Assembly: GCA_043820025.1 (NCBI GenBank)
Contig: JBDRED010000025.1
Span: 1-56,621, forward strand
Direction of reading: 5' to 3'
Length of the DNA stretch: 56,621 nt
Source of the DNA: JBDRED01 sp043820025 [NCBI: Elusimicrobiota bacterium]
Lineage (GTDB): Bacteria > RUG730 > JBDRED01
Translations under genes and position numbers: made by a program
Shown: positions 2 to 56,621 of the stretch, piece after piece
Numbering within the stretch: the stretch's first letter is position 1
Layout of the letters: every line of letters starts with the position of its first letter
Notes under the pieces: model-generated
Databases searched by the model: none
What the model was told of the DNA's origin: nothing
The model's input: the letters and a program-made list of their open reading frames with translations, nothing else

Positions 2-3000
2 ATTATGGCAGATGGTGATGCTGTTAGATATGATTTAGGGCAGTCTCAAACAACTTATAATTGCGTAGAAAATAGTTTTGTTATGGTAAGCTCAGGAGCA
101 ACTTCTAATTATTATCAAGTAGGATTATTTGGGAAATCTATAGCGTCATTTGTGGGAACAGGACGAGTCGGTATTGGAGAAACAGCGCCGGAGTCTGCGA
201 TGGAAATAACCTCAGCTTCACCTATAATAACATTGCATAATTCAACAAATCAGGACACAAATAACGGGAGAGAATCAAGATTAGAATTTAAAGGTCAGCA
301 ATCCGGGGGAGAAGAAACTTCTCTTGCGAGATTAGCTGTTTCTCATTCCGGAACTTCAGATGATGAAAAAGGACAAATGGTATTTAGGGTTAATGATGGG
401 AATGACGGGGCTAGTCCTTCTGAAAAGATGAGAATAACTGATACGGGAAACGTAGGAATAGCAACTTCTATTCCAATTGGAAGATTACAAGTGTCGGGAG
501 ACACTGTGATAGGCGGTGGAACATCATTATTGCGAATGCTTGGAGCTGGCGGAGCATTATATATACAACCATCATCATCAACAGTTACAGGTTCTTCAGC
601 TGATTTATATTTTTCAAATTGGTATCAAGGCACCCCAAAACTTGTAATTAAAGCAGGCGGGAATATTGGAGTAGGCACATCAGAACCCGGCGAACCATTA
701 AATGTGATAGGAGATATTTCTTCCAGCACTACGATTTATGCGCCTATAGGAGATTTTTCTGATATATATGTTTCGACAATAAATACAAAGTCGCCGTTAT
801 ATATAAATAATACGGCAAATAATGTTTTAATAACAGGGACAGGTAATATGGGTATAGGGAATACAAATCCAAATGAGAAGTTGGATGTTATAGGAGATAT
901 TTCTTCCAGCACTACGATTTATGCGCCTATAGGCGATTTTACTAATGTATATGTGTCAACTATATACTCAAAATCTCCTTTGCAATTCGCGACTAACGGA
1001 ATAAATAGAATGACATTAAATGACAACGGTTATGTTGGAATAGGGTCAACAAATCCGGCAAGCCCATTAGATGTAATAGTCCCAAATGGCGGCGCGGCTA
1101 GGATTCAAACAAGTACACTTGGTAATGAAGAATCAGCATTTCTTAATTTTCAGGGAAGAGGGATTATTGGATACTCAAGTTTTACGGCAATGGGATTATC
1201 CGGTCTTGAAATGCGTACTCCGAGCAAACATATATTAATCAATACGAATGATACGATTTTAGATAATTACATATTTATAAATGGAACCAGCAGTGATTAT
1301 ATAAAATTTGGCACGTTTGGAACAGAGAGAGTGATAATTAGTTCCAGCGGTTATCTGGGAATAGGCACAACGAATCCCGGAGCGTTATTATCTTTAAATA
1401 ACAGTCTGGGAAATACCAAATTAGCATTATTTGATGGGGGAAGCACATTTTATGGCATGGGAATACAATCCAATCAATTTAGGCTTCATGTTGGAAATAA
1501 TAGCGGAAGATTTTCGTTTTTAGACGCGCCTAGCGGGAATGAATTGCTTACAATTAAGGGAACAGGCAATGTAGGAATAGGTACAACAGAGCCCAGCGTT
1601 TTGTTGCATTTAGAAAAAGATTATTCAGTTACAACGGTTATATCAAAGATATATGATCCGGCAATGAGCGCTGGCCATGCTTTAAGAATCAATTTGGGAA
1701 ATGCGGATTCAACAAATAATTCAGCTCAAATAAGTTATACTCATGTGGGTTTAGGATCAGCATCTAATTATTTAAGCCTTGGTATGTATGGAACTCTAGA
1801 TACTCTTAATGTAACCGGAAACAGCCGCGTAGGTTTAGGCACAACATCTCCGGCTGAAAGACTCGAGGTAAATGGAAATATTACATTCTCAGGCACTGAA
1901 GGAAATATAAAAAAGATAAACGAACTTGAAGGAGCAAATGATTTGAAATTGTCCGGAGATGCGACTAATGATGCAGATATATATATTCATGCAAATGGCA
2001 ATGTGGGAATAGCTACTACAAATCCTGCGGCAAAACTATACGTTAAGGGAGCAGGCGGCACAAATACAGGAGTTATCGTTGCTTATGAAACTACAGATAA
2101 TTGGGTGCACGGCGGGCCGTCTGCAAATCCGACTACCGCGCTAAAATTATACAGAGAAGGGCATACAAGCGAATCTTACGCAAATGCAGTTGATTTTAAT
2201 CTGCTGAGATATGAAGATTCATCCACTAATTCAAGGACCAGGATGGATATTAAATTAGCCAATGTCACTGCTGCTCCTGATACGAATGTTATGACCTTAT
2301 TATCTAATGGTAATGTGGGAATAGGAACAACAGCTCCAGCTCAAATACTCCAAATAAAGGGGACAACAAATACACCTGTGTTATTAATTGAACCATTATC
2401 ATGGTCTTCCGGAAATTCCAGCGAGGTAAGGCTTGGTGACACAGCTCATTATCTAAAAGCTACACATTCAGGCGGTATGATAATTTATGATTTAGATAAG
2501 ATTAATTTAGAAGGATCCAATGTTGGCATAGGAACTGCAAATCCGGCAAAAAAACTTCATGTAAACGGAGATATACAGATAGAAGGCGTGCTTATAAGTC
2601 ATAATATTGATTCAGGCGACGGCCCTTCTATGGTATGGAAGGATACGGTTCATACTATGGCGAAATACAGTTCTTCCGCTAGATATAAGGAAAATATTGA
2701 GGTTTTCAAGGATGATTTTTATAAAATTCTTACTCTTGAGCCTAAGATATATAACAGAAAGAACGATCCATTGAAGAAAAAAGAGATTGGATATATAGCA
2801 GAGGAGATGGATGCTGCAGGATTAAACTATCTTGTATTCTACGATGAACAAGGCAGGCCTGATTCAATTAATGATAAGAAAATTGCTGTGTATACCAATG
2901 AGATTGTTAAAGACAATATCAAAAAAATTGAAGATCAGAAAGATGAAATTGATATGTTGAAAGATGAAAATAAGGAACTCAGGGCTAGGGTAGAGGAGAT

Positions 3001-3022
3001 TGAGAGTTTGTTAAATAAATAA
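2..3022 (+). CDS. Large repetitive surface/fibre protein with C-terminal peptidase S74 self-cleaving chaperone domain (5' partial)
   Basis: The frame is open to the left edge and no signal peptide is visible, so the true start probably lies upstream; the first ATG is at 5. The visible part (1005 residues from that ATG) holds about eleven copies of a short module of the form G-N-V-G-I-G-T-T-x-P-x-x-x-L-x-V-x-G-D-I, separated by 40-90 residues of Ser/Thr/Asn/Gly-rich sequence that looks like beta-structured stalk. The last 115 residues match the peptidase S74 / endosialidase-chaperone family: S-A-R-Y-K-E-N-I starts at residue 891 (DNA 2675), giving the Ser891/Lys895 pair of the S-x-R-x-K-x-x-I motif, followed by a coiled coil to the C-terminus. 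Known S74 domains trimerise, fold a beta-helical fibre and then cleave just before the Ser. The role here (surface fibre, adhesin or phage-tail-like) is inferred. Confidence 0.8.
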   Translation: MMADGDAVRYDLGQSQTTYNCVENSFVMVSSGATSNYYQVGLFGKSIASFVGTGRVGIGETAPESAMEITSASPIITLHNSTNQDTNNGRESRLEFKGQQSGGEETSLARLAVSHSGTSDDEKGQMVFRVNDGNDGASPSEKMRITDTGNVGIATSIPIGRLQVSGDTVIGGGTSLLRMLGAGGALYIQPSSSTVTGSSADLYFSNWYQGTPKLVIKAGGNIGVGTSEPGEPLNVIGDISSSTTIYAPIGDFSDIYVSTINTKSPLYINNTANNVLITGTGNMGIGNTNPNEKLDVIGDISSSTTIYAPIGDFTNVYVSTIYSKSPLQFATNGINRMTLNDNGYVGIGSTNPASPLDVIVPNGGAARIQTSTLGNEESAFLNFQGRGIIGYSSFTAMGLSGLEMRTPSKHILINTNDTILDNYIFINGTSSDYIKFGTFGTERVIISSSGYLGIGTTNPGALLSLNNSLGNTKLALFDGGSTFYGMGIQSNQFRLHVGNNSGRFSFLDAPSGNELLTIKGTGNVGIGTTEPSVLLHLEKDYSVTTVISKIYDPAMSAGHALRINLGNADSTNNSAQISYTHVGLGSASNYLSLGMYGTLDTLNVTGNSRVGLGTTSPAERLEVNGNITFSGTEGNIKKINELEGANDLKLSGDATNDADIYIHANGNVGIATTNPAAKLYVKGAGGTNTGVIVAYETTDNWVHGGPSANPTTALKLYREGHTSESYANAVDFNLLRYEDSSTNSRTRMDIKLANVTAAPDTNVMTLLSNGNVGIGTTAPAQILQIKGTTNTPVLLIEPLSWSSGNSSEVRLGDTAHYLKATHSGGMIIYDLDKINLEGSNVGIGTANPAKKLHVNGDIQIEGVLISHNIDSGDGPSMVWKDTVHTMAKYSSSARYKENIEVFKDDFYKILTLEPKIYNRKNDPLKKKEIGYIAEEMDAAGLNYLVFYDEQGRPDSINDKKIAVYTNEIVKDNIKKIEDQKDEIDMLKDENKELRARVEEIESLLNK
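707..933 (+). repeat. 44-nt exact direct repeat, two copies 183 bp apart
   Basis: Bases 707-750 and 890-933 are identical over 44 nt. They encode the same I-G-D-I-S-S-S-T-T-I-Y-A-P-I-G stretch in two neighbouring modules of the S74 protein. The offset is exactly 61 codons, so this is a recent in-frame duplication of one stalk module. Confidence 0.9.
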
Positions 3023-4987: not shown

Positions 4988-5000
4988 TCTTAAATAATAT

Positions 5001-5158
5001 TACCCTGCGATGCGCGCGATGTACAGCTTTTGTTTTGCCTATGAGCAACAAAAAGGGAGTTCGGAGTCGCTTCTAGCCTTGGCTTTTAGCGCAGGACACC
5101 CACTTATTTTTTTGGTGCTTAACAAGGTTGTATACACGGCATATGCGGGGTTTTTTTA
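5001..5158 (+). ncRNA. ssrS: Candidate 6S RNA
   Basis: This gap has no convincing protein gene but folds as a long rod. ACCCTGC (5002-5008) pairs with GCGGGGT (5145-5151), ATGC (5010-5013) with GCAT (5139-5142) and TGTAC (5020-5024) with GTATA (5130-5134). A large interior loop follows, then an apical hairpin around a CTTG tetraloop near 5077. A T-run at 5151-5157 ends it like an intrinsic terminator. A possible promoter is TTGGAC at 4967 with TAAATA at 4991. Position is the strongest argument: in many proteobacteria 6S RNA lies between zapA and the 5-formyl-THF cyclo-ligase gene, and here only rarA intervenes. Other structured RNAs cannot be excluded. Confidence 0.6.
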
Positions 5159-34999: not shown

Positions 35000-35794
35000 A
35001 TGATAAAGAAAAAAATTTTAGGAATTTTATTATTAATTTGCGCGCTTGTTGTTAGTAGCGCTATTGCCGGGAAGGTGGATAAAGACGCGGTTACGCAGAC
35101 ATCCGCAATAAACGCTCTATTAGAAGGCGTTTATGACGGAACTGTGAGCTTTAAAATGCTAAAAAAGTTCGGAGATTTGGGCCTAGGCACATTTGAAGCG
35201 ATTGACGGAGAGATGGTGATGCTTAATGGTATAGTATATCAAGTTAAGGCTGATGGCAATGTTTATAAGTCGGATGTAAATGCTATAACTCCGTTTTCTG
35301 TAGTTAAAAAATTTAATGCGGATCTTGTTGTAGATGTTCCGGCAGTTGCGGGTTATGATAAATTAAAACAATTCTTAGACGAGTTTATTGATTCAAATAA
35401 TATTTTTTATGCGTTTAAAATCCATGGCGAGTTTAAAAATGTTAAGACTAGAAGCGTGCCTCGTCAGTCAAAGCCTTATCCGGTATTAGCCGAGGTAATA
35501 AAAGAGCAGACAATATTTGAGTATAAGAATATTAAAGGTTATATTATTGGGTTTTGGTGCCCGAAATATATTAATGGAATAAATGTCCCGGGATATCATC
35601 TGCATTTTATATCAGATGATTATACAAAGGGCGGCCATCTCTTGGACTGCGAAGTGGAAAACGCTATAGCATCAATTGATAAGTCATATAGTTTTTATAT
35701 GATGTTGCCGCAGATTGAATCGTTTGAAAAAACTGATATTTCCGGTGAAAAAGAGAAATCGCTCATGCAAGTTGAAACAATGCCGGCCAAATAA
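35000..35794 (+). CDS. budA: Alpha-acetolactate decarboxylase with signal peptide
   Basis: ALDC converts 2-acetolactate to acetoin. The 264-residue product has a clear signal peptide (1-23, ending A-I-A-G), then the family signatures T-F-E-A-I-D-G-E-M-V (about 64-73), V-K-T-R-S-V-P-R-Q (about 150) and G-Y-H-L-H-F (198-203) with G-G-H-L-L-D. His200, His202 and His213 reproduce the H-x-H-x10-H zinc site. The ribosome-binding site AGGGGGG is strong. No acetolactate synthase gene lies nearby. Confidence 0.9.
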   Translation: MIKKKILGILLLICALVVSSAIAGKVDKDAVTQTSAINALLEGVYDGTVSFKMLKKFGDLGLGTFEAIDGEMVMLNGIVYQVKADGNVYKSDVNAITPFSVVKKFNADLVVDVPAVAGYDKLKQFLDEFIDSNNIFYAFKIHGEFKNVKTRSVPRQSKPYPVLAEVIKEQTIFEYKNIKGYIIGFWCPKYINGINVPGYHLHFISDDYTKGGHLLDCEVENAIASIDKSYSFYMMLPQIESFEKTDISGEKEKSLMQVETMPAK

Positions 35795-35841: not shown

Positions 35842-35869
35842 TTGACAAGAATCATTCTCAAAATATAAA
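35842..35869 (+). promoter_or_regulatory. Near-consensus promoter overlapped by a Fur-like box
   Basis: A perfect TTGACA (35842-35847), a 16-bp spacer and TATAAA (35864-35869). The 15-mer at 35846-35860, CAAGAATCATTCTCA, matches 10 of the 12 fixed positions of the 7-1-7 Fur consensus TGANAATNATTNTCA and contains the perfect dyad AGAATCATTCT. It covers the spacer and the -35 edge, where a repressor would block polymerase. Confidence 0.65.
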
Positions 35870-35955
35870 ATATGTTAAATTTAACCTATTGTCTGTGACG
35901 ACGATCAGGAAGAAGCCGGGTTTATTTGAATGCTTTTTAAAAGGAGGTGTTTTGT

Positions 35956-36036
35956 ATGGCCTGCAAGAAAAAAACAGCAAAAAAAACAGCGCCTAAGAAG
36001 AAATGCTGTTCTACAAAAAAAGCGAAATGTAAGTAG
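35956..36036 (+). CDS. 26-residue Lys/Cys-rich microprotein
   Basis: An AAGGAGGTG ribosome-binding site (35941-35949) precedes ATG at 35956. The product has 12 Lys and 4 Cys (positions 3, 17, 18, 25) in 26 residues and no hydrophobic segment. I recognise no family. The composition suggests binding of metal (Cys pair) and of polyanions (Lys). Support for a real gene comes from the strong promoter, Fur-like box and ideal Shine-Dalgarno; an 81-base frame alone would be weak evidence. Confidence 0.6.
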   Translation: MACKKKTAKKTAPKKKCCSTKKAKCK

Positions 36037-36171
36037 ACATAAAAAACGAGCGTTTAGGCGCGCGCGCGCTGAATCGAAGTTTGTGGATTGAAATGAATGA
36101 ACAATTTAGTTTCAAATTAGTACAACTGAGGCTAAAAATCTAAAAATAATTTTAATGGAAGATATGGGGCT

Positions 36172-36342
36172 ATGAAAGAATTTAACGATATTAATGTAGA
36201 TAGAAAAAGAAAGAAAGAAGGCGTTAATAAAAAAAGGAATAATGATTTTTTTGGAGAAAGGGCGCGGCTTAAAGATATTAAGCTTGCAAAAGAACTTAGA
36301 AAAAATAAGAAATACAAAAAAAATATGATAGATTTTGAATAA
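36172..36342 (+). CDS. Small basic protein, 56 residues
   Basis: The product is very rich in Lys, Arg and Asn and predicted helical or disordered, with no Cys or membrane segment. I do not recognise it. A six-codon frame starting at ATG 36155 ends in a TGA overlapping this ATG, so translation may be coupled. It ends 3 bp from the convergent metallophosphoesterase. A minus-strand frame also covers it, but its composition is what an antisense of Lys/Arg-rich codons gives. Confidence 0.5.
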   Translation: MKEFNDINVDRKRKKEGVNKKRNNDFFGERARLKDIKLAKELRKNKKYKKNMIDFE

Positions 36343-36344
36343 CG

Positions 36345-37472
36345 CTAAGACTTTCTTTTGAGAGTTATCAGCGCTATTTCAGGCGGAGAGAATAGGCGCA
36401 TGGGCGGGCCCCATGTGCCTGCGCCTCTATTTGTGTATATGTAACTATTCTTGTATTTATTCAAACCTTGCGGATACTCGAAAATCATCTTAATAATTAA
36501 ATTTCCCGGAAATATTTGTCCGTTGTGCGTATGTCCGGATAATTGCAGTAAGGCTCCCAAATCAGCGGCTTTTTTAAAATTTGCAGGCCTGTGCGTTAAA
36601 AATATAATCGGCCGTGAGCCTGAGCATTTTCCAAATAGTTCATCTATTGTATTTGACATTTTACCAATAAAGCTTGAGTGTTCTTCATCATCAAGCGCGA
36701 CAATATCAATTAGGTTATGGAATATTAGAACCTCATTTCTTAATAAAGGAATATTGGATTCTTTGAAAAGCTGTTCTATCTTATCAATCCCTGCGTAAAA
36801 TTCATGGTTTCCGGGCACAGCGTAAACAGGCGCAATTACTGAGAATTCTTTTAATATGTGTATTAAAGGCTTTGCCCGTCCCATGTCAGCGTCAACAAAA
36901 TCTCCGGTAATCACTATCAGGTCAGGATTTGTATTTTTGCAGAGAGCAATGATTTTTAAGAGTTCTTTTTCTCTAATCATTGTGCCTGCGTGCATATCTG
37001 ATAGGTGTAGTATTTTTAGTTCATCTGTGTTTAGTGTGGGCGCTTGTATTGTGATGTTGGTAATTGCCGGATGATGCGCTTCGTAAATCGCAAATACACT
37101 GAAACATAAAGTTAGTATTAAAAGCAGTACTGTTGAATAAAATATGAAAACAGAATTTTGGGTAATTGAGATTGAGAATATTTTGGAAAATAATAATAAA
37201 ATATAGAAAATACTGAATATGCTTATGCCAATAGTGGTAAATCCCAGCCATATTGAACCAATATATGTCAAGATAAATGGAATGGTATTAGGCGCGATCC
37301 TGTCCAATATTGCGCCTAATGGGTAAGAAACAGCTAAAACCGGCAATAAAACGCGTAGGTAAATTTTGACAGAAGGGATTCCTCTAATGATGAAAAAATA
37401 CATTAAAAGATTAAATCCAAAATAAGCGGATAAGAAAATCGTTAAAAATGTAAATATGGAAAGTATACGCAT
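36345..37472 (-). CDS. Membrane metallophosphoesterase (YkuE-like)
   Basis: The 375-residue product has four membrane helices in about residues 1-130, then a calcineurin-like phosphoesterase domain: H-L-S-D-M-H-A-G (about 156), I-T-G-D-F-V-D-A-D (about 187), V-P-G-N-H-E-F-Y (about 218), L-T-H-R-P (about 294) and L-S-G-H-T-H-N-G-Q (about 311). All metal ligands are present. Relatives with this layout include YkuE and related envelope phosphoesterases. It is transcribed divergently from gmhB; a minus-strand TGC-TATATT near 37540 may be its extended -10. Confidence 0.88.
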   Translation of the reverse strand: MRILSIFTFLTIFLSAYFGFNLLMYFFIIRGIPSVKIYLRVLLPVLAVSYPLGAILDRIAPNTIPFILTYIGSIWLGFTTIGISIFSIFYILLLFSKIFSISITQNSVFIFYSTVLLLILTLCFSVFAIYEAHHPAITNITIQAPTLNTDELKILHLSDMHAGTMIREKELLKIIALCKNTNPDLIVITGDFVDADMGRAKPLIHILKEFSVIAPVYAVPGNHEFYAGIDKIEQLFKESNIPLLRNEVLIFHNLIDIVALDDEEHSSFIGKMSNTIDELFGKCSGSRPIIFLTHRPANFKKAADLGALLQLSGHTHNGQIFPGNLIIKMIFEYPQGLNKYKNSYIYTNRGAGTWGPPMRLFSPPEIALITLKRKS

Positions 37473-38261: not shown

Positions 38262-39380
38262 ATGAAAGTTCTGTTTATAAGTTCATCAATAGGCAATGGC
38301 GGCAGGGAAATAGCTGTTGTAAGATTAGCTTCGCTAATGAACGCCGGAGGCCATGATGTTTTTGTCGTAATAAAAAAAGGCACCTGGTTAGAACGGGAGA
38401 TAGCTTCTTTACATCTGCCTTACGCAGCGTTTTCCATTAGAAAATATTTTGATCCAATTTCTTTAATTAAAATCGGTTTAAAACTCAGGAGCTTTAAACC
38501 GCATATGGTTCAGCTTCATTTTATTAGCGATATATGGCATGTTTCGCCGGCTGTAAAGATGTTTTTTAATAAAACTAAGATTATTCTTTTTAGGCATATG
38601 CAGTCATCAAATATGAAGGATTGGGCCCGCGCCAAATTATTCAGCGCTGTTTATAAAGTTTGCGCTGTATCAGAATTTATTAAAAAAGATTTTTTATCAA
38701 AAACAAATGTTTCTCCTGATAAGGTTGATGTTGTATATCTGGGAGTTGACGTAGAAGATTACGCTAAATATGACAATATAAGAAAGCTAAGGTCTGAATA
38801 TAAGATTGATGACAATACTGTTTTAGTCGGCTTGGTTGGCAGGATAGACAGAGCAAAAGGCCAGGATAAACTGGTATTGGCTGCAGAAGAAATTTTGAAG
38901 TTTAAAAACAATGTTAAATTTGCTATCATTGGTAAATCTGAAATGATAAAGGAATCAGGGGTTGAAAAACCCTATGATCATATTATCAAAAATCTAATTA
39001 ATGAACACGGCCTTGAAGATTACTTTATTTTCACCGGATTTAGGCGTGATGTTCAGGAAATTTTAAGTTCCTTGGATGTGGCGGTTTGCGCGTCGCAAGA
39101 AGAGGCTTATGGGCTTGTTGTTGTTGAGGCTATGGCAGCAGCAAGACCAATAGTTGTTTTTGACAGAGGCGCTCTTCCTGAACTTGTTATTAATAATGAG
39201 ACAGGTAAGATAGTCCCGTATTCGGTTAAAGGCTTGGCTCGCGGCATAATGGACATAATCAGCGATCCTGTATTGGAACAAAAATACGGTCATAATGCTC
39301 GAGAACATGTAAAGATAAGGTTCAATATTAATACTACAATAAAACAAATAGAGGGTTATATTAATGAAGAAAGATTTTAA
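38262..39380 (+). CDS. Glycosyltransferase family 4 (LPS core type)
   Basis: The 372-residue product has a GT-B fold: N-terminal S-S-S-I-G-N-G-G-R-E-I-A (about 7-18), linker H-M-Q-S-S-N, G-L-V-G-R-I-D-R-A-K-G-Q-D (about 190-202) and the C-terminal E-E-A-Y-G-L-V-V-V-E-A-M-A-A (about 285-298), the nucleotide-sugar Glu motif. The sugar is unknown; its place between gmhB and hldE1 suggests heptose or core assembly. ATG at 38262 is preferred to ATG 38235 because the core domain starts immediately after it. It overlaps hldE1 by 17 nt. Confidence 0.87.
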   Translation: MKVLFISSSIGNGGREIAVVRLASLMNAGGHDVFVVIKKGTWLEREIASLHLPYAAFSIRKYFDPISLIKIGLKLRSFKPHMVQLHFISDIWHVSPAVKMFFNKTKIILFRHMQSSNMKDWARAKLFSAVYKVCAVSEFIKKDFLSKTNVSPDKVDVVYLGVDVEDYAKYDNIRKLRSEYKIDDNTVLVGLVGRIDRAKGQDKLVLAAEEILKFKNNVKFAIIGKSEMIKESGVEKPYDHIIKNLINEHGLEDYFIFTGFRRDVQEILSSLDVAVCASQEEAYGLVVVEAMAAARPIVVFDRGALPELVINNETGKIVPYSVKGLARGIMDIISDPVLEQKYGHNAREHVKIRFNINTTIKQIEGYINEERF

Positions 39381-40341
39381 TGGTATTATAGACAGTTTTA
39401 AAGGAAAGAAGGTTCTTGTAATAGGAGATCTGGTGTTAGATGAATACTGGCATGGAATAACAGGCCGCGTTTCCCGCGAAGCGCCTGTGCTTATTCTAGA
39501 CTATGAAGGAAAAACCTGCACATTGGGCGGAGCGGCGAATGCAATAAACAATGCCGCGTCGCTTGGCGCTAACGTAATACCGATCAGTGTTTTGGGTTCT
39601 GATCCGGCAGCTGACACAATAATTGATATGTTTAAAAGCAGCGGGATCAACTGCGATGGGATAATAAATGATAAGGATGTAATAACCCCTACAAAGGTTA
39701 GAGTTATGGCCGGATGTATGCACACGGCAAGACAGCAGGTGCTTAGAATTGATAAGCAGTTTAAAGATGATTTTTCAGAAAATTTAAAGAAAAGAATAAT
39801 TGAAACGATTAATAAATATTCAAAATGGGCTGATGTAATAATTGTGTCTGATTACGGTATTGGCGTGATTTCGCCCGTGGTTGTTGAGGCGATAAATGAG
39901 CTTGGAGGCAAAGGTATTCCTGTAATTGTGGATAGCAGATATAGTCTGAATAGTTTTAGAAATATCTTAATTGCTACTCCAAATGAGGATGAAGCAGGGG
40001 ATGCTCTGCAGAAAAATATCAATAATAACAATGCTGAGGAATCAGCGCGCAGTCTTGCGGCTGCTCTTAAATCAAAAGCTATGCTCATTACAATGGGCAG
40101 GGAAGGAATGGCTCTTTTCGACGGAAAGGATTATCATAAACTGCCTATTGTCGGGTCTAGTGATATTGTTGATGTTACAGGCGCCGGAGATACTGTTGTA
40201 GCTGTGATAAGTTTAGCGTATACTGCCGGAGTGCCATGGCTGGATGCCGCTAAACTCGCTAATGCCGCGGCTTCAATAGTAGTAATGCATAGGGGCTCAG
40301 CTGTGGTTTCGCCAATGGAACTAAAAAAAATAATGGCTTAG
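39364..40341 (+). CDS. PfkB-family heptose-7-phosphate kinase (HldE domain 1), copy 1
   Basis: This domain phosphorylates heptose-7-P at C1. The 325-residue product has V-I-G-D-L-V-L-D-E-Y-W (about 20-30), S-R-E-A-P-V (about 38), L-G-G-A-A-N-A-I-N-N-A (about 55) and D-V-T-G-A-G-D-T-V (about 263-271), with the catalytic Asp. It is separate from the adenylyltransferase (next gene), unlike the E. coli fusion. A second paralogue lies at 41473. Confidence 0.9.
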   Translation: MKKDFNGIIDSFKGKKVLVIGDLVLDEYWHGITGRVSREAPVLILDYEGKTCTLGGAANAINNAASLGANVIPISVLGSDPAADTIIDMFKSSGINCDGIINDKDVITPTKVRVMAGCMHTARQQVLRIDKQFKDDFSENLKKRIIETINKYSKWADVIIVSDYGIGVISPVVVEAINELGGKGIPVIVDSRYSLNSFRNILIATPNEDEAGDALQKNINNNNAEESARSLAAALKSKAMLITMGREGMALFDGKDYHKLPIVGSSDIVDVTGAGDTVVAVISLAYTAGVPWLDAAKLANAAASIVVMHRGSAVVSPMELKKIMA

Positions 40342-51630: not shown

Positions 51631-54600
51631 ATGAACATAAAAAAAATCTTTCAAACCGCATTTCATTTTCTATTAGTCTTTTCATTTTTCTCAATTCTTA
51701 ATATTTTATACGCAGCTGAATCTTCGGGACCAAATCCGGGTAATCTAAGTCCAACCGGCACATTCGATACAACATTCACAGGTGCATTTACCTATACCTA
51801 TCCAATAGAGGTAGTTCAAGGCAGACAGGGTATACAGCCTAATTTGGCATTTGTATATAATTCTCAGGCAGGTAATGGATGGCTGGGAGTTGGATGGGAC
51901 CTAAGTGTAGGCGCTATATTTCGAAGCACTAGATATGGTATCCCAAAATATGATGACACTAGTTCCGGAACAAGTGATATCTTTATATTTAGTATTGCAG
52001 GACAGGCTAGTGAACTTGTAAAGGTTGGACAGGGATCAGATTATTGGGAATTTAGATCCCAGGTTGAAGCTGGATTTATGCGATTTCAATATTATTATAA
52101 TTCGCGTCAATGGATAGTTTTAGATAAAACCGGGAAAAAATATGAATTGAACGGACTTGTTGAGGTTAATGGGAAATATACATATTGGGGATTAACGAAG
52201 GTAACAGATACTAATGGTAATTATATGCAAATTCAGTATCCTGCACCTAAGATTACCACATTTTCCGGAGGAGGAGCAGGAGTAATTAACTATTTACCAT
52301 CAAACATACTGTATACGGGAAAGGATGGGGATGCTCCTAAACAAGAGGTAGTATTCGAATATGAACCTCGTCCAGATATAATAACTAATTATAGGACAGG
52401 AGTTGAACAAAAACTTGATGAAAGGTTGAAGAGGATTATAGTTAAAAGTAATGGAGTCCTTATTCGAAAATATGAATGCAATTATATTACAAATATATCG
52501 GGGAATTCTCTATTAGAATATGTAAGGGTATATGGAAAAGATGGTATAAGTAGTTTGCCGGAAACAAAATTTAGTTATGATTCAGGTAATACCCTATTCA
52601 ATAGGGTTTGGAGTACAAACAATTTTGGTACTATAATAACAAATAATTTTACTGCCGCTGATTTTACAGGTGATGGTTTGTGTGATGCAAGTCTAAGTTA
52701 TTATGCTGATAATAAAACCAAATTTTATCGTGGAATAAATAATGGAAATAATCTAGATTACCAGTATTCCTTTGAAAAAGAAATCAGAATCCAGGATGGG
52801 AATACTATAAGGTATTATAAAACAAATGTAAGTAATGGGGATTTTGATGGTGATAATGAAGCAGATTTATGTTTGTTTTATACTGATTATGCCGGATTTG
52901 CGCATTTAATTCCTGAAATAGCCATAAATGGATACAATATCCAAAATTGGAGCGGGCTTACATTTAATAGCGATGACAAATTTATGCCGGATTGTTTGCT
53001 TGTGGGTGATTATAATGGAGATGGGAAGAGCGATATTTTTGTTAATAGATATCAGGATGGAGGATGGGTGGCAACCAGTAATGGCAGTGGCTTTAATTCT
53101 TCAAAGTGGGTAGCAAATGGTGATATGCTCTATTATGGTAATACATGGAAAACCGGCGATTTTAACGGAGATGGCTATAGTGATATTCTATATTATGATG
53201 GTTGGAATTATGGCGGCAATATTAAAGTTGGGCTAAGTAATGGAAGTAATGGATTTAATGTTAGTGTGTGGAGTGATATTAATTTTGGCCTGGATGGAAA
53301 TGATGAAAGGGGTAAATTTCAAATAGGCGATTTTAATGGAGATGGATTAAGTGATATATCTTTTTGGGATTGGGAAAATGGGAAAACTTGGATTGGTTTA
53401 AGCACAGGTAAAAGCTTTAATTTTAGTATTTGGAATAATGATTCTTGGCATGGAGAAGCTGTTTCAGATACTTTTTTAGCCGGCGATTTTAACTCTGATG
53501 GTTTAACGGATTTGTCTTTTTATAAGGAAGAATCATCAAATTTTTATGTTGGATACAGTAATGGCAGTAGTATTCCTTCTTGGCAGGTTATGGATACATT
53601 TAATTATGGGTCAAGGCCAAATAAAGCGCAGCGTCTAGGCGATTTTAATGGGGATGGTTTATTAGATGTTTGTTTCTATGACGGAGGGGAGACCACAGTA
53701 AGGGAAAATACAAGTAAGGTAAGCAATCTGGTAAATATTAAAAACATGCTCGGAGGGTCTATAAATATTGGTTATGGAACATATAGGCATAGTAATGTAT
53801 GGTATTTGCCTTTCCCTGTAAATGTGATTAAGAATATTAATACTTCAGATGGCATGGGTAATAATATTTCACTTACTTATTCATTTATTGATGGCTTGTT
53901 TGATAAGGAACCATATAGAAAACGTGAATTTTTAGGATTTAATACAGTTAGAACTGTAGATAGTATTGGGAATATATTAGAAGTCAAATATTTACAAACT
54001 CAAAATGCATTAAATGATATAAATATATTTAAAGGTCAAATATATGAAAAAGCATCCTATAATAGTAGTGGAAATCTTTTAACTAAAACAGTAAATACAT
54101 TCTCTTATAGCCGGCCTTTTTCAGGAGTATATTTTCCACAAATAATAAAAACTGATAATTACTTTTTTGATAAACATACTCAGACAGAGTTTTGCTATGA
54201 TGATTATGGCAACGTTACTCAAACATATTTTACAGGTGACGTAGATGTTTCGGGTGACGAGAATACAATTCAACTCGAATACGCTCGGAATACTGAAACT
54301 AATATGGTTAGTTATCCAAAACATGAAAAAATGTTAGACCATGAAGGAGATATTATAAAAGAGCTTTGGTATTATTATGATAATTCAAATGATTGGAATA
54401 CGCAGACACCTGTGAAAGGTAATATGTCAAGAACAGAAAAATGGAATAATAATGGTAATAAGCAAATAATAACTATGTCTTATGATCAATATGGCAATAT
54501 GACAGATACATATGATGCATTGTGGAACGAGACTAATGGTTTAGATGGAAATCACACACATATAGTATATGATGCTATTTTCCATCAGTATATTAGCGCA

Positions 54601-56621
54601 GCAAGTAATGGGCTTAATCATACAGAGCATTACACTTATAATGAAGCAGGTCAGGTTTTGACATATACTGATGCAAATAATAAAGTCACATCCAGTGAAT
54701 ACGATAATTATAGTAATATTATTAAGATAATTGGACATAAAGATTGTTCCGAGTATCCTACCACAACATATGAGTATTTTATTTATCAGGCTCCTCCTCA
54801 TAGAATAGTTACAACTCAGCGTGTAAACCATGGAGAAGCAGATATATTAAAAGTTTTTACATTTATTGATGGTTTGGGAAGAACCTGCCAGACGAAGGGG
54901 CCTGCATCGAGTAATAAACAGGTAATATCAGATATAGTAAAATACAATCTAAGAGGAGGGGTTGAAAGATCCTATGTGCCATATACTTCAGTTTATTCAG
55001 AAGAATATACTGCTCCGGATTATAATAAACCTTCTTCTTTAAATATTTATGACGAATTAGGAAGAATCATACAAATAACTCAGCCTGACGGCACGACTAT
55101 TAAGAAAATATATTCAAACTGGAATGAAACTATTCTTGACGGAAAAAACGTAGCCAAAGATTATATTAAAGATGTTTATGGGAGAATAAGAGAGGTTCAC
55201 GAACACAACACCGGAGAGGAATACATTACAAAATATGAGTACAATGCGCTTGGAAACTTAATAAAGCTGATAAATGATAAAGGAGATATTACAACAATTA
55301 ATTATGACAGTCTCGGCAGGAAGGTCAGTATGCAGGATTCTGTTATGGGCGATTGGCATTACGCATATAATATTAATAATAATTTAGTGGCTCAGACAGA
55401 TAATAAAAATCAAACTATAGAAATGAATTATGATAGATTAGGTAGAATTATTTTAAAAACATATCCGAATAATTCTAATATAGCATACGAATATGATAAT
55501 GGAAATAATGGTATTGGCAGGCTTACGCGTGTTACAGACCTATCAGGAACAACGGATTTTAGTTATGATGAATTAGGTAGGAATATTAGTAAAGCGCGTA
55601 CAATAAATGGTGTTGCAGGCACTAAAACTACGAGTAATGAATATGATGCTTTAGGCAGGCCTACAAAGCTGGTTTATCCTGATAATGATTTTATAAATTA
55701 TAAATATGAAACAGGAGTGCTGAAATCTATAAAAAATAGCGCGGATACTTTGTCTTACGCAGTATTAACTTATGATGAACAGGCTGTTGGAAAATTGTCA
55801 AGTATAGAATACGGAAATGGAATAGTAACTAACTATACATACAAACCAAATAATTTCCTCTTAGGTTCTTTAACAACAAGTAATAATGTGCAATATTATA
55901 GCTATGAGTATGATCCAATAGGAAATATTACACAGATAAATGAAAATGGGATCATAAAACAAAGATATACATATGATGATCTTTCAAGATTAACAAGGGC
56001 TGAAGGTGATTATGGCGCAAAGGAATACATTTATGATAGTATAGGGAATATTGAAAACACTGCGTCTGCAAATAATAGTTTTGTGGGATGCGATGATTTT
56101 GACGGACTTAGTGTAACGGGGGGAGTAAGCAGCTGCAGCGGCAGGTTAAGCGGAGGCATATATTTTAATGGCTGTGGATCATGTGAAATTGAAGGCTCGG
56201 ATAAGCTGGCACTTAATACATTAGGAATAGAGTTATGGATATTGCCAGAGGCTTCGGATAGCGGATATATTGTGTTAAAAGAAGGTTCTTATGGGATAAG
56301 AATAATTGATAATAATATTATGGGTAGTGTTATTATTGATAATATAGAATATAGCGTGACTGCTGAAAATTGTGTGAGGCTTAATGCCTGGCAGTATATT
56401 GTAATGACCCATGATGGAAATAATTTAAAAATATTTGTCAATGGTATTGAAAAAGGGAGTGTTCAAGTACAAGGATGCATAGATATTTCAGATAAAAAAG
56501 TGATAATAGGCAATTCAGATGGTAAGTATATACATAATTATCAAGGCAGAATAGATGAATTACATATTTCAAATAATGTTATGCCGCCTGCGTTTATATT
56601 TAATAATTATAAAGCTATGCC
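51631..56621 (+). CDS. Giant exported SpvB/TcB-like RHS protein with FG-GAP repeats and LamG domain (3' partial)
   Basis: One frame stays open from ATG 51631 to the window edge (1663 codons, no stop). Order: signal peptide (1-28, ending L-Y-A-A); SpvB N-terminal domain (about 40-340, with G-W-L-G-V-G-W-D-L); seven FG-GAP/VCBS repeats of D-F-N-G-D-G type at about 345, 403, 459, 509, 566, 617 and 669; a TcB-type middle domain (about 700-850, R-E-F-L-G-F-N-T-V near 765); RHS/YD repeats (about 855-1480, such as Y-D-E-L-G-R-I); and a LamG/jelly-roll domain from about 1488. In Tc toxins, TcB and TcC form a cocoon around a toxic C-terminus; that end is not visible here. AGGAGGG (51611-51617) is spaced for a start-stop ATG at 51624, not for 51631. 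Confidence 0.9.
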   Translation, partial: MNIKKIFQTAFHFLLVFSFFSILNILYAAESSGPNPGNLSPTGTFDTTFTGAFTYTYPIEVVQGRQGIQPNLAFVYNSQAGNGWLGVGWDLSVGAIFRSTRYGIPKYDDTSSGTSDIFIFSIAGQASELVKVGQGSDYWEFRSQVEAGFMRFQYYYNSRQWIVLDKTGKKYELNGLVEVNGKYTYWGLTKVTDTNGNYMQIQYPAPKITTFSGGGAGVINYLPSNILYTGKDGDAPKQEVVFEYEPRPDIITNYRTGVEQKLDERLKRIIVKSNGVLIRKYECNYITNISGNSLLEYVRVYGKDGISSLPETKFSYDSGNTLFNRVWSTNNFGTIITNNFTAADFTGDGLCDASLSYYADNKTKFYRGINNGNNLDYQYSFEKEIRIQDGNTIRYYKTNVSNGDFDGDNEADLCLFYTDYAGFAHLIPEIAINGYNIQNWSGLTFNSDDKFMPDCLLVGDYNGDGKSDIFVNRYQDGGWVATSNGSGFNSSKWVANGDMLYYGNTWKTGDFNGDGYSDILYYDGWNYGGNIKVGLSNGSNGFNVSVWSDINFGLDGNDERGKFQIGDFNGDGLSDISFWDWENGKTWIGLSTGKSFNFSIWNNDSWHGEAVSDTFLAGDFNSDGLTDLSFYKEESSNFYVGYSNGSSIPSWQVMDTFNYGSRPNKAQRLGDFNGDGLLDVCFYDGGETTVRENTSKVSNLVNIKNMLGGSINIGYGTYRHSNVWYLPFPVNVIKNINTSDGMGNNISLTYSFIDGLFDKEPYRKREFLGFNTVRTVDSIGNILEVKYLQTQNALNDINIFKGQIYEKASYNSSGNLLTKTVNTFSYSRPFSGVYFPQIIKTDNYFFDKHTQTEFCYDDYGNVTQTYFTGDVDVSGDENTIQLEYARNTETNMVSYPKHEKMLDHEGDIIKELWYYYDNSNDWNTQTPVKGNMSRTEKWNNNGNKQIITMSYDQYGNMTDTYDALWNETNGLDGNHTHIVYDAIFHQYISAASNGLNHTEHYTYNEAGQVLTYTDANNKVTSSEYDNYSNIIKIIGHKDCSEYPTTTYEYFIYQAPPHRIVTTQRVNHGEADILKVFTFIDGLGRTCQTKGPASSNKQVISDIVKYNLRGGVERSYVPYTSVYSEEYTAPDYNKPSSLNIYDELGRIIQITQPDGTTIKKIYSNWNETILDGKNVAKDYIKDVYGRIREVHEHNTGEEYITKYEYNALGNLIKLINDKGDITTINYDSLGRKVSMQDSVMGDWHYAYNINNNLVAQTDNKNQTIEMNYDRLGRIILKTYPNNSNIAYEYDNGNNGIGRLTRVTDLSGTTDFSYDELGRNISKARTINGVAGTKTTSNEYDALGRPTKLVYPDNDFINYKYETGVLKSIKNSADTLSYAVLTYDEQAVGKLSSIEYGNGIVTNYTYKPNNFLLGSLTTSNNVQYYSYEYDPIGNITQINENGIIKQRYTYDDLSRLTRAEGDYGAKEYIYDSIGNIENTASANNSFVGCDDFDGLSVTGGVSSCSGRLSGGIYFNGCGSCEIEGSDKLALNTLGIELWILPEASDSGYIVLKEGSYGIRIIDNNIMGSVIIDNIEYSVTAENCVRLNAWQYIVMTHDGNNLKIFVNGIEKGSVQVQGCIDISDKKVIIGNSDGKYIHNYQGRIDELHISNNVMPPAFIFNNYKAM

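What the first reader, a model, noticed from the sequence alone, without database searches (positions are those of the whole stretch)
35842..36036. Fur-box-like promoter driving a 26-residue Lys/Cys microprotein
A perfect TTGACA and TATAAA pair is overlapped by a 15-mer matching 10 of 12 fixed positions of the 7-1-7 Fur consensus. It drives an ideal Shine-Dalgarno and a tiny frame with 12 Lys and 4 Cys including a Cys-Cys pair. The promoter elements and the frame are seen directly; Fur binding is inference from the known consensus. A metal-regulated, metal-binding or nucleic-acid-binding microprotein of this kind is not one I can name.
Basis: partly seen in the sequence, partly recalled or inferred. 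Interest (0 to 1): 0.7.

Follow-up and report, generated by a model that had tools for sequence, protein, structure and literature searches.

The report
Tiny lysine-cysteine gene behind strong promoter
This is very probably a real, strongly translated gene for a 26-residue positively charged protein with four cysteines, perhaps switched on when metal is scarce, but no relative of it could be reached, so its control and job remain unproven.

Summary
Window 35956-36036 encodes MACKKKTAKKTAPKKKCCSTKKAKCK behind an exact TTGACA, a near-consensus -10 and a 10-base Shine-Dalgarno. It is not a chance frame: its Shine-Dalgarno is the longest among the start sites tested, and of 303 real 20-40-residue ATG frames only this one has over 45% lysine, against 0 of 15,332 in shuffled DNA. 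I take it as a real orphan microgene.

The Fur reading is weaker than written. "10 of 12" occurs 19 times in the window and about 10 times in shuffles; against the full 14-position consensus it is 10 of 14. On a matrix from 12 E. coli Fur promoters the site ranks 2nd of 56,607 positions, best outside genes, and is 13/15 identical to the best match upstream of ryhB. Chance would put about 0.15 such sites in the window's intergenic DNA. No Fur gene was found in the 50 of 56 window genes scanned; conservation could not be tested.

A by-product: ribosome-site-led MACKKK frames in viral contigs are nearly always 10-20-residue Lys-rich peptides (16 of 17; Ala control 3 of 120, Ser control 2 of 33).

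The parts
35842..35847 (+). -35 hexamer TTGACA, exact
   Evidence: sequence; only + strand promoter match in the window with exact -35 and at most one -10 mismatch
35864..35869 (+). -10 hexamer TATAAA (16-nt spacer); alternative TAAAAT 35866-35871 (18-nt spacer)
35846..35860 (+). Fur-box-like 15-mer CAAGAATCATTCTCA overlapping the -35 and the spacer; perfect 5-1-5 dyad AGAAT-C-ATTCT; possible operator
   Evidence: 10/14 of TGATAATNATTATCA, 10/12 of TGANAATNATTNTCA, rank 2 of 56,607 on an E. coli Fur matrix; 13/15 identical to the best match upstream of ryhB
35876..35955 (+). predicted 5' untranslated region (start site inferred from the -10)
   Evidence: inference; no unusually stable fold (z -0.76 and -0.93)
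35940..35949 (+). Shine-Dalgarno AAAGGAGGTG, 6 nt before the ATG
   Evidence: 10-nt match; the 29 ATG-started + strand genes tested have at most 7, shuffled frames at most 8
35956..36036 (+). 26-aa Lys/Cys microprotein MACKKKTAKKTAPKKKCCSTKKAKCK
36172..36342 (+). next small Lys-rich frame (56 aa) on the same strand, possibly co-transcribed; coding status uncertain
   Evidence: no Pfam or NCBIfam match; no terminator-like site found between the two frames

Best explanation
A real microgene, alone or with the 56-aa frame behind it. A strong sigma-70-type promoter and an optimal ribosome site make a 26-residue, strongly basic peptide with four cysteines. The promoter carries an operator-like dyad that fits a Fur-family repressor occluding RNA polymerase when iron (or another metal) is plentiful, so the peptide would be made under metal limitation. 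The polylysine body would bind nucleic acid, most likely RNA, and the cysteines would bind a metal or form disulfides. It would thus work like the small basic Fur-controlled proteins of the B. subtilis iron-sparing response (FbpA, FbpB, FbpC). Shown: the sequence elements and their departure from chance. Inferred: translation, Fur-family control, nucleic-acid and metal binding. My split: real translated gene about 0.85; Fur-family control about 0.4; RNA/DNA binding as the main activity about 0.5. The confidence below is for a real gene under Fur-type control; the binding steps are less certain.
For: Frame composition and Shine-Dalgarno far outside chance. Near-ideal promoter. Site ranks 2nd of 56,607 on the E. 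coli Fur matrix; the only higher site, 36905, lies inside the phosphoesterase gene; 6 of 12 E. coli sites score above its 13.1 when left out (range 3.9 to 19.4). 13/15 identity to the best match upstream of ryhB. Fur boxes of various bacteria are said to share only 50 to 80% with the consensus (PMC7536154, passages). Precedent of a 29-aa basic Fur-controlled protein, FbpC (PMC8464778, passages).
Against: No homologue found: Pfam to E 10, NCBIfam to E 1, PDB sequences to E 10, plasmids, phages, 57 genomes of one phylum and 371 of another (two weak hits at E 0.009 and 0.047, the first in an 84-aa Cys-rich frame with no wider likeness, the second not resolved). None of these genomes is known to be a relative, so conservation is untested. 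About 0.15 sites as good as this one are expected in the window's intergenic DNA, at the window's own rate, this site included. The site fits only 10 of 14 positions of the full consensus. No fur or iron-uptake gene in the 50 of 56 window genes scanned. RNA binding is unproven even for FbpA/B/C.
Confidence: 0.4

Rival explanations
1. Real microgene, but not metal-regulated: the dyad is chance or another repressor's site, and the peptide is a constitutively abundant basic cofactor of nucleoid or ribosome (protamine- or H1-tail-like), with cysteines for cross-linking.
For: Frame and Shine-Dalgarno statistics do not depend on Fur. 5-1-5 dyads are as frequent as chance (83 in the window, shuffles 85). 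No metal-uptake genes among the 50 of 56 window genes scanned.
Against: The dyad sits across the -35/spacer of the best + strand promoter and scores best of all intergenic sites.
Confidence: 0.35
2. Metal-handling peptide: a minimal Cys4 (C3, C17, C18, C25) thiolate ligand or metallochaperone for Fe, Zn or Cu, the lysines being secondary.
For: 4 Cys in 26 residues with a Cys-Cys pair; possible metal-type operator.
Against: No CxC or CxxC pattern, no match to any Pfam or NCBIfam model; a Fur-repressed storage peptide would be expected under excess, not limitation, of iron.
Confidence: 0.12
3. The product of value is the RNA: a Fur-repressed small RNA of the RyhB/FsrA type, the frame being incidental or dual-function.
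For: 13/15 identity of the site to the best match upstream of ryhB; strong promoter.
Against: 10-nt Shine-Dalgarno and extreme residue bias argue for translation; no unusually stable fold; no terminator-like site right after the frame; no Rfam match here at gathering scores.
Confidence: 0.08
4. Chance frame or decaying remnant without function.
For: No relatives found in anything searched.
Against: 0 of 15,332 shuffled frames as Lys-rich, none with so long a Shine-Dalgarno.
Confidence: 0.05

Closest known systems
FbpA/FbpB/FbpC (Bacillus subtilis Fur-regulated small basic proteins, 54/48/29 aa)
   Same: Tiny, strongly basic, Fur-type site (possible here), proposed nucleic-acid partner role (passages of PMC8464778).
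   Different: No Pfam model matches the window peptide. I had no Fbp sequence to align, so their Cys content and any likeness were not checked. Organism and Fur gene unknown.
RyhB-type Fur-repressed small RNA promoters (E. coli ryhB)
   Same: 15-mer 13/15 identical to the best Fur-consensus match between ryhB and yhhY, which I take as its Fur box.
   Different: Here a frame with an optimal ribosome site follows; no Rfam match and no unusual fold.
Ultra-short Cys3-Lys peptides in viral contigs, M[AGSP]CKKK...K
   Same: Ribosome-site-led start, Cys at position 3 followed by lysines, Lys-rich to the end. The shared MACKKK start is by construction of the query.
   Different: 8-20 aa and mostly one Cys; the window peptide has 26 aa and four Cys and lies among chromosomal genes; 0 of 6 viral matches to a Cys-Cys pattern resemble it.
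Lys-rich histone-H1-like bacterial proteins (recalled)
   Same: Lys/Ala/Thr/Pro repetitive basic sequence.
   Different: Far shorter, four Cys, no Pfam match.

Membership tests
FbpA/B/C-type Fur-regulated small basic proteins | Small (under 60 aa) and strongly basic | tested here: met
   26 aa, 12 Lys, no acidic residue, pI about 10.2
FbpA/B/C-type Fur-regulated small basic proteins | Repression by Fur through a promoter Fur box | tested here: inconclusive
   10/14 of the full consensus; rank 2 of 56,607 on the E. coli matrix; about 0.15 equally good sites expected in intergenic DNA
FbpA/B/C-type Fur-regulated small basic proteins | Sequence homology to the Fbp families in Pfam (that such models exist is recalled; FbpC may have none) | tested here: not met
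   No Pfam match up to E 10
FbpA/B/C-type Fur-regulated small basic proteins | Partner of a Fur-controlled small RNA such as FsrA | not testable with these tools
   Genome not held
Fur regulon member in its own organism | A Fur-family regulator in the genome | tested here: inconclusive
   None in the 50 of 56 window genes scanned; the rest of the genome is not held
Fur regulon member in its own organism | Operator conserved upstream of orthologues | not tested
   No relatives reached
Metallothionein-like peptide | CxC/CxxC clusters or a match to a metallothionein model | tested here: not met
   Cys at 3, 17, 18, 25 only; no model match
Viral M[AGSP]CKKK...K peptides | GGAGG-led frame, small residue 2, Cys3, Lys4-6, Lys-rich to a stop within about 20 codons | tested here: inconclusive
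   All but the length are met (26 aa), but the first six residues were the query itself; context is chromosomal, not viral

The most novel reading that the evidence does not exclude
Ultra-short peptides with a small second residue, Cys3 and a polylysine tail are an unnamed, recurrent class, often found among viral genes of head assembly and DNA packaging, and the window holds a chromosomal, four-cysteine version under a Fur-type switch: a thiol-bearing, protamine-like nucleic-acid binder deployed by viruses and by a bacterium under metal limitation.
Probability: 0.12. Interest if true: 0.75.

Novelty: new variant of a known kind. Interest (0 to 1): 0.42.

Why it matters
If the gene is Fur-controlled it would bring the B. 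subtilis-type arrangement of tiny basic iron-stress proteins, whose mechanism is still unsettled (papers seen in passages), into a lineage that I could not identify, in a cysteine-bearing form that could sense or bind the metal itself. The viral Cys3-Lys peptides, if confirmed, would be a class of genes shorter than most gene finders report (recalled), often in head and packaging modules.

Tried and rejected
Scan of genome contigs with the neighbouring kinase 39364-40341: 48 stretches matched a pattern, none confirmed. The second scan, with a degenerate motif of the window's sigma factor, gave two contigs with other sigma factors, titled Dadabacteria and Woesearchaeota. They served only as doors to 57 and 371 genomes of those contigs' phyla, whose kinship to the window is unknown. 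Viral contigs: two spaced Lys/Cys patterns of the peptide 0 hits; acetolactate decarboxylase 0 confirmed of 21 pattern matches.

Fur tests: the E. coli 19-mer gave nothing within 4 mismatches. PerR-type consensus has nothing at the promoter. Structured leader: folds not unusual. Terminator after the frame or between the decarboxylase gene and the promoter: none convincing.

Viral peptides: named relatives were sought for four contigs (L166, L018, L021, L030) and a fifth (L168), and found for three; five of the 25 matching phage records were examined and none has the peptide (the matches are distant and partial). Of the 34 frames of 30 aa or fewer, I dropped four that are not Lys-rich or only 6 aa (L171, L176, L181, L185) before looking at neighbours; of the 30 left, three lie inside a longer frame on the same strand (L027, L028, L033) and may be spurious. 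The wider pattern in 371 genomes gave one hit and its reversed control also one.

Papers: searches for Lys/Cys-rich small or Fur-linked bacterial proteins gave nothing relevant or one review on RNA chaperones, not read; the letters of the viral peptides gave no paper; a broader search listed two papers, not read. The original Fbp paper is not held.

Full report
What is there. An exact TTGACA (35842-35847) is followed after 16 nt by TATAAA (35864-35869), or after 18 nt by TAAAAT; both -10 readings have one mismatch. The 15-mer CAAGAATCATTCTCA (35846-35860) overlaps the -35 and the spacer. AAAGGAGGTG (35940-35949) lies 6 nt before the ATG at 35956. The frame encodes MACKKKTAKKTAPKKKCCSTKKAKCK: 12 Lys, 4 Cys, 4 Ala, 3 Thr, Pro, Ser, Met; no acidic and no large hydrophobic residue other than the start Met. 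Upstream lies acetolactate decarboxylase (35000-35794), downstream a 56-aa Lys-rich frame (36172-36342) and, convergent, a metallophosphoesterase (36345-37472).

Chance. In 60 single-strand shuffled windows none of 15,332 ATG frames of 20-40 aa reached 45% Lys, and none had a Shine-Dalgarno match longer than 8; in the real window 1 of 303 such frames (this one) passes on Lys, and its 10-nt Shine-Dalgarno beats the 29 ATG-started + strand genes tested, whose longest is 7. On the + strand it has the only promoter with an exact -35 and at most one -10 mismatch; the other strand has two such matches and shuffles average 0.62 per strand. The frame is therefore very probably a real gene. The test is on one sequence only, since no relative could be reached.

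The Fur claim. Against TGATAATNATTATCA the site has 10 of 14. As a yardstick I took the intergenic regions of 12 E. coli K-12 promoters that I know as Fur-controlled (recalled list) and 16 other intergenic regions from the same fetched pieces, not checked for Fur and some close to fur itself. The best 12-position match has 2 or fewer mismatches in 10 of 12 Fur regions and in 1 of 16 others; 3 or fewer in 12 of 12 and 5 of 16. On a matrix from the 12 sites the window's 15-mer scores 13.1, second of 56,607 positions; the one above it, 36905, is inside a gene. Left-one-out E. coli sites score 3.9-19.4, 6 of 12 above 13.1. It is 13/15 identical to the best match upstream of ryhB. At the window's own rate, this site included, chance gives 0.15 such sites in all 4,217 intergenic bases and 0.001 in one 30-base promoter. 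The motif is thus a fair but not a secure Fur-type operator. In B. subtilis two boxes matching 10 of 15 bases showed weak binding in vitro and no measurable Fur occupancy in vivo, while one with 13 of 15 worked (PMC6212828, passages); elsewhere identities of 50 to 80% are reported (PMC7536154, passages). No Fur-family gene was found among the 50 of 56 called window genes scanned; the six not scanned are 5-3022, 39364, 43212, 50376, 50864 and the open frame at 51632 (one search failed).

Relatives. The genome is not held. Two genome-collection scans failed to reach the lineage. No match in Pfam, NCBIfam, PDB, plasmids or phages, nor in 57 genomes of one phylum. In a second phylum 2 of 371 had weak hits; the better one lies in an 84-aa Cys-rich frame with no wider likeness, and the other was not resolved. 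The empty answers say nothing about close relatives.

A class met on the way. Searching viral contigs for GGAGG, a 4-9 nt gap and MACKKK gave 17 stretches; 16 of the 17 frames end after 10-20 residues and are almost purely Lys, Gly, Ser, Thr, Pro, Ala, Arg; one is 95 aa. These p values treat contigs as independent, which some are not. With any second residue, 49 stretches; 34 frames are 30 aa or shorter, 29 of them with Ala, Gly, Ser or Pro, residues that allow Met removal (recalled rule). Four MSCKKKGKGGRK and two MPCKKKKRKPRY copies are near-duplicates. I had 30 neighbour proteins of my choice from 21 of the 30 retained loci scanned: 12 proteins in 10 loci match PHROGs for portal, head-tail adaptor, minor head, scaffold, head assembly, major head or terminase; the others match PhoH, endolysin, tail or transglycosylase, HNH, protease or unknown families, or nothing. 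Two of those 10 loci have the small frame inside a longer one, and two carry the same peptide. Five named phages related to three of the contigs lack it. One genome of the Woesearchaeota contig's phylum holds a 33-aa MACKKKKESKEKKKKK... frame, but the reversed control pattern also hit once in the same 371 genomes. None has the window peptide's Cys-Cys (0 of 6 matches to such a pattern). I read this as a lead that short Cys3-Lys peptides are a real kind of gene, not as proof of kinship with the window peptide, whose first six residues were the query.

Mechanism. Most likely: a strong promoter held by a Fur-family repressor in metal-replete cells; on metal limitation a short mRNA with an optimal ribosome site makes a small basic Cys peptide that binds nucleic acid and, through thiols, metal or itself. 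The nearest precedent is FbpA/B/C of B. subtilis, 54, 48 and 29 aa, basic, Fur-controlled, proposed RNA chaperones for the small RNA FsrA, RNA binding not yet confirmed (PMC8464778 and PMC7430163, passages; PMC12871923, passages). Works-like is plausible; membership is not shown.

Verdict. Observation confirmed; microgene very likely real; Fur control possible; function inferred by analogy. It is a new variant of a known kind (tiny basic stress proteins), of moderate interest, raised somewhat by the viral peptides.

Noticed in passing
L017-L021, L023-L033, L157, L158, L160, L162, L166-L169, L172, L177, L178, L182, L184 (viral contigs): GGAGG-led M[AGSP]CKKK frames are mostly 8-20-aa Lys-rich peptides with one Cys, in 10 of 21 loci scanned beside portal, head, scaffold or terminase genes; Ala or Ser in place of Cys gives mostly longer frames.
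   Followed up: partly
L225 (genome G137, phylum of the Woesearchaeota contig): 33-aa MACKKKKESKEKKKKKFEEVESQEDPSLGDEVF frame about 50 nt downstream of a 357-aa membrane protein with an HEFSH motif (M50-protease-like by eye), an arrangement worth checking as a modified-peptide locus.
   Followed up: no
window 36172-36342: 56-aa Lys-rich frame with no family match between the microgene and the convergent phosphoesterase; may be co-transcribed.
   Followed up: partly
window 36058-36069: A GCGCGCGCGCGC run just after the frame, in DNA of about 36% GC.
   Followed up: no
window 4999-5155: 6S RNA (Rfam RF00013, 50 bits) between zapA and a RarA/MgsA-type ATPase gene.
   Followed up: no
window 51632-56621: Region cut by the window end whose reading resembles RHS/SpvB-like secreted repeat proteins by eye; not read through, and the one family search that named it failed.
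   Followed up: no
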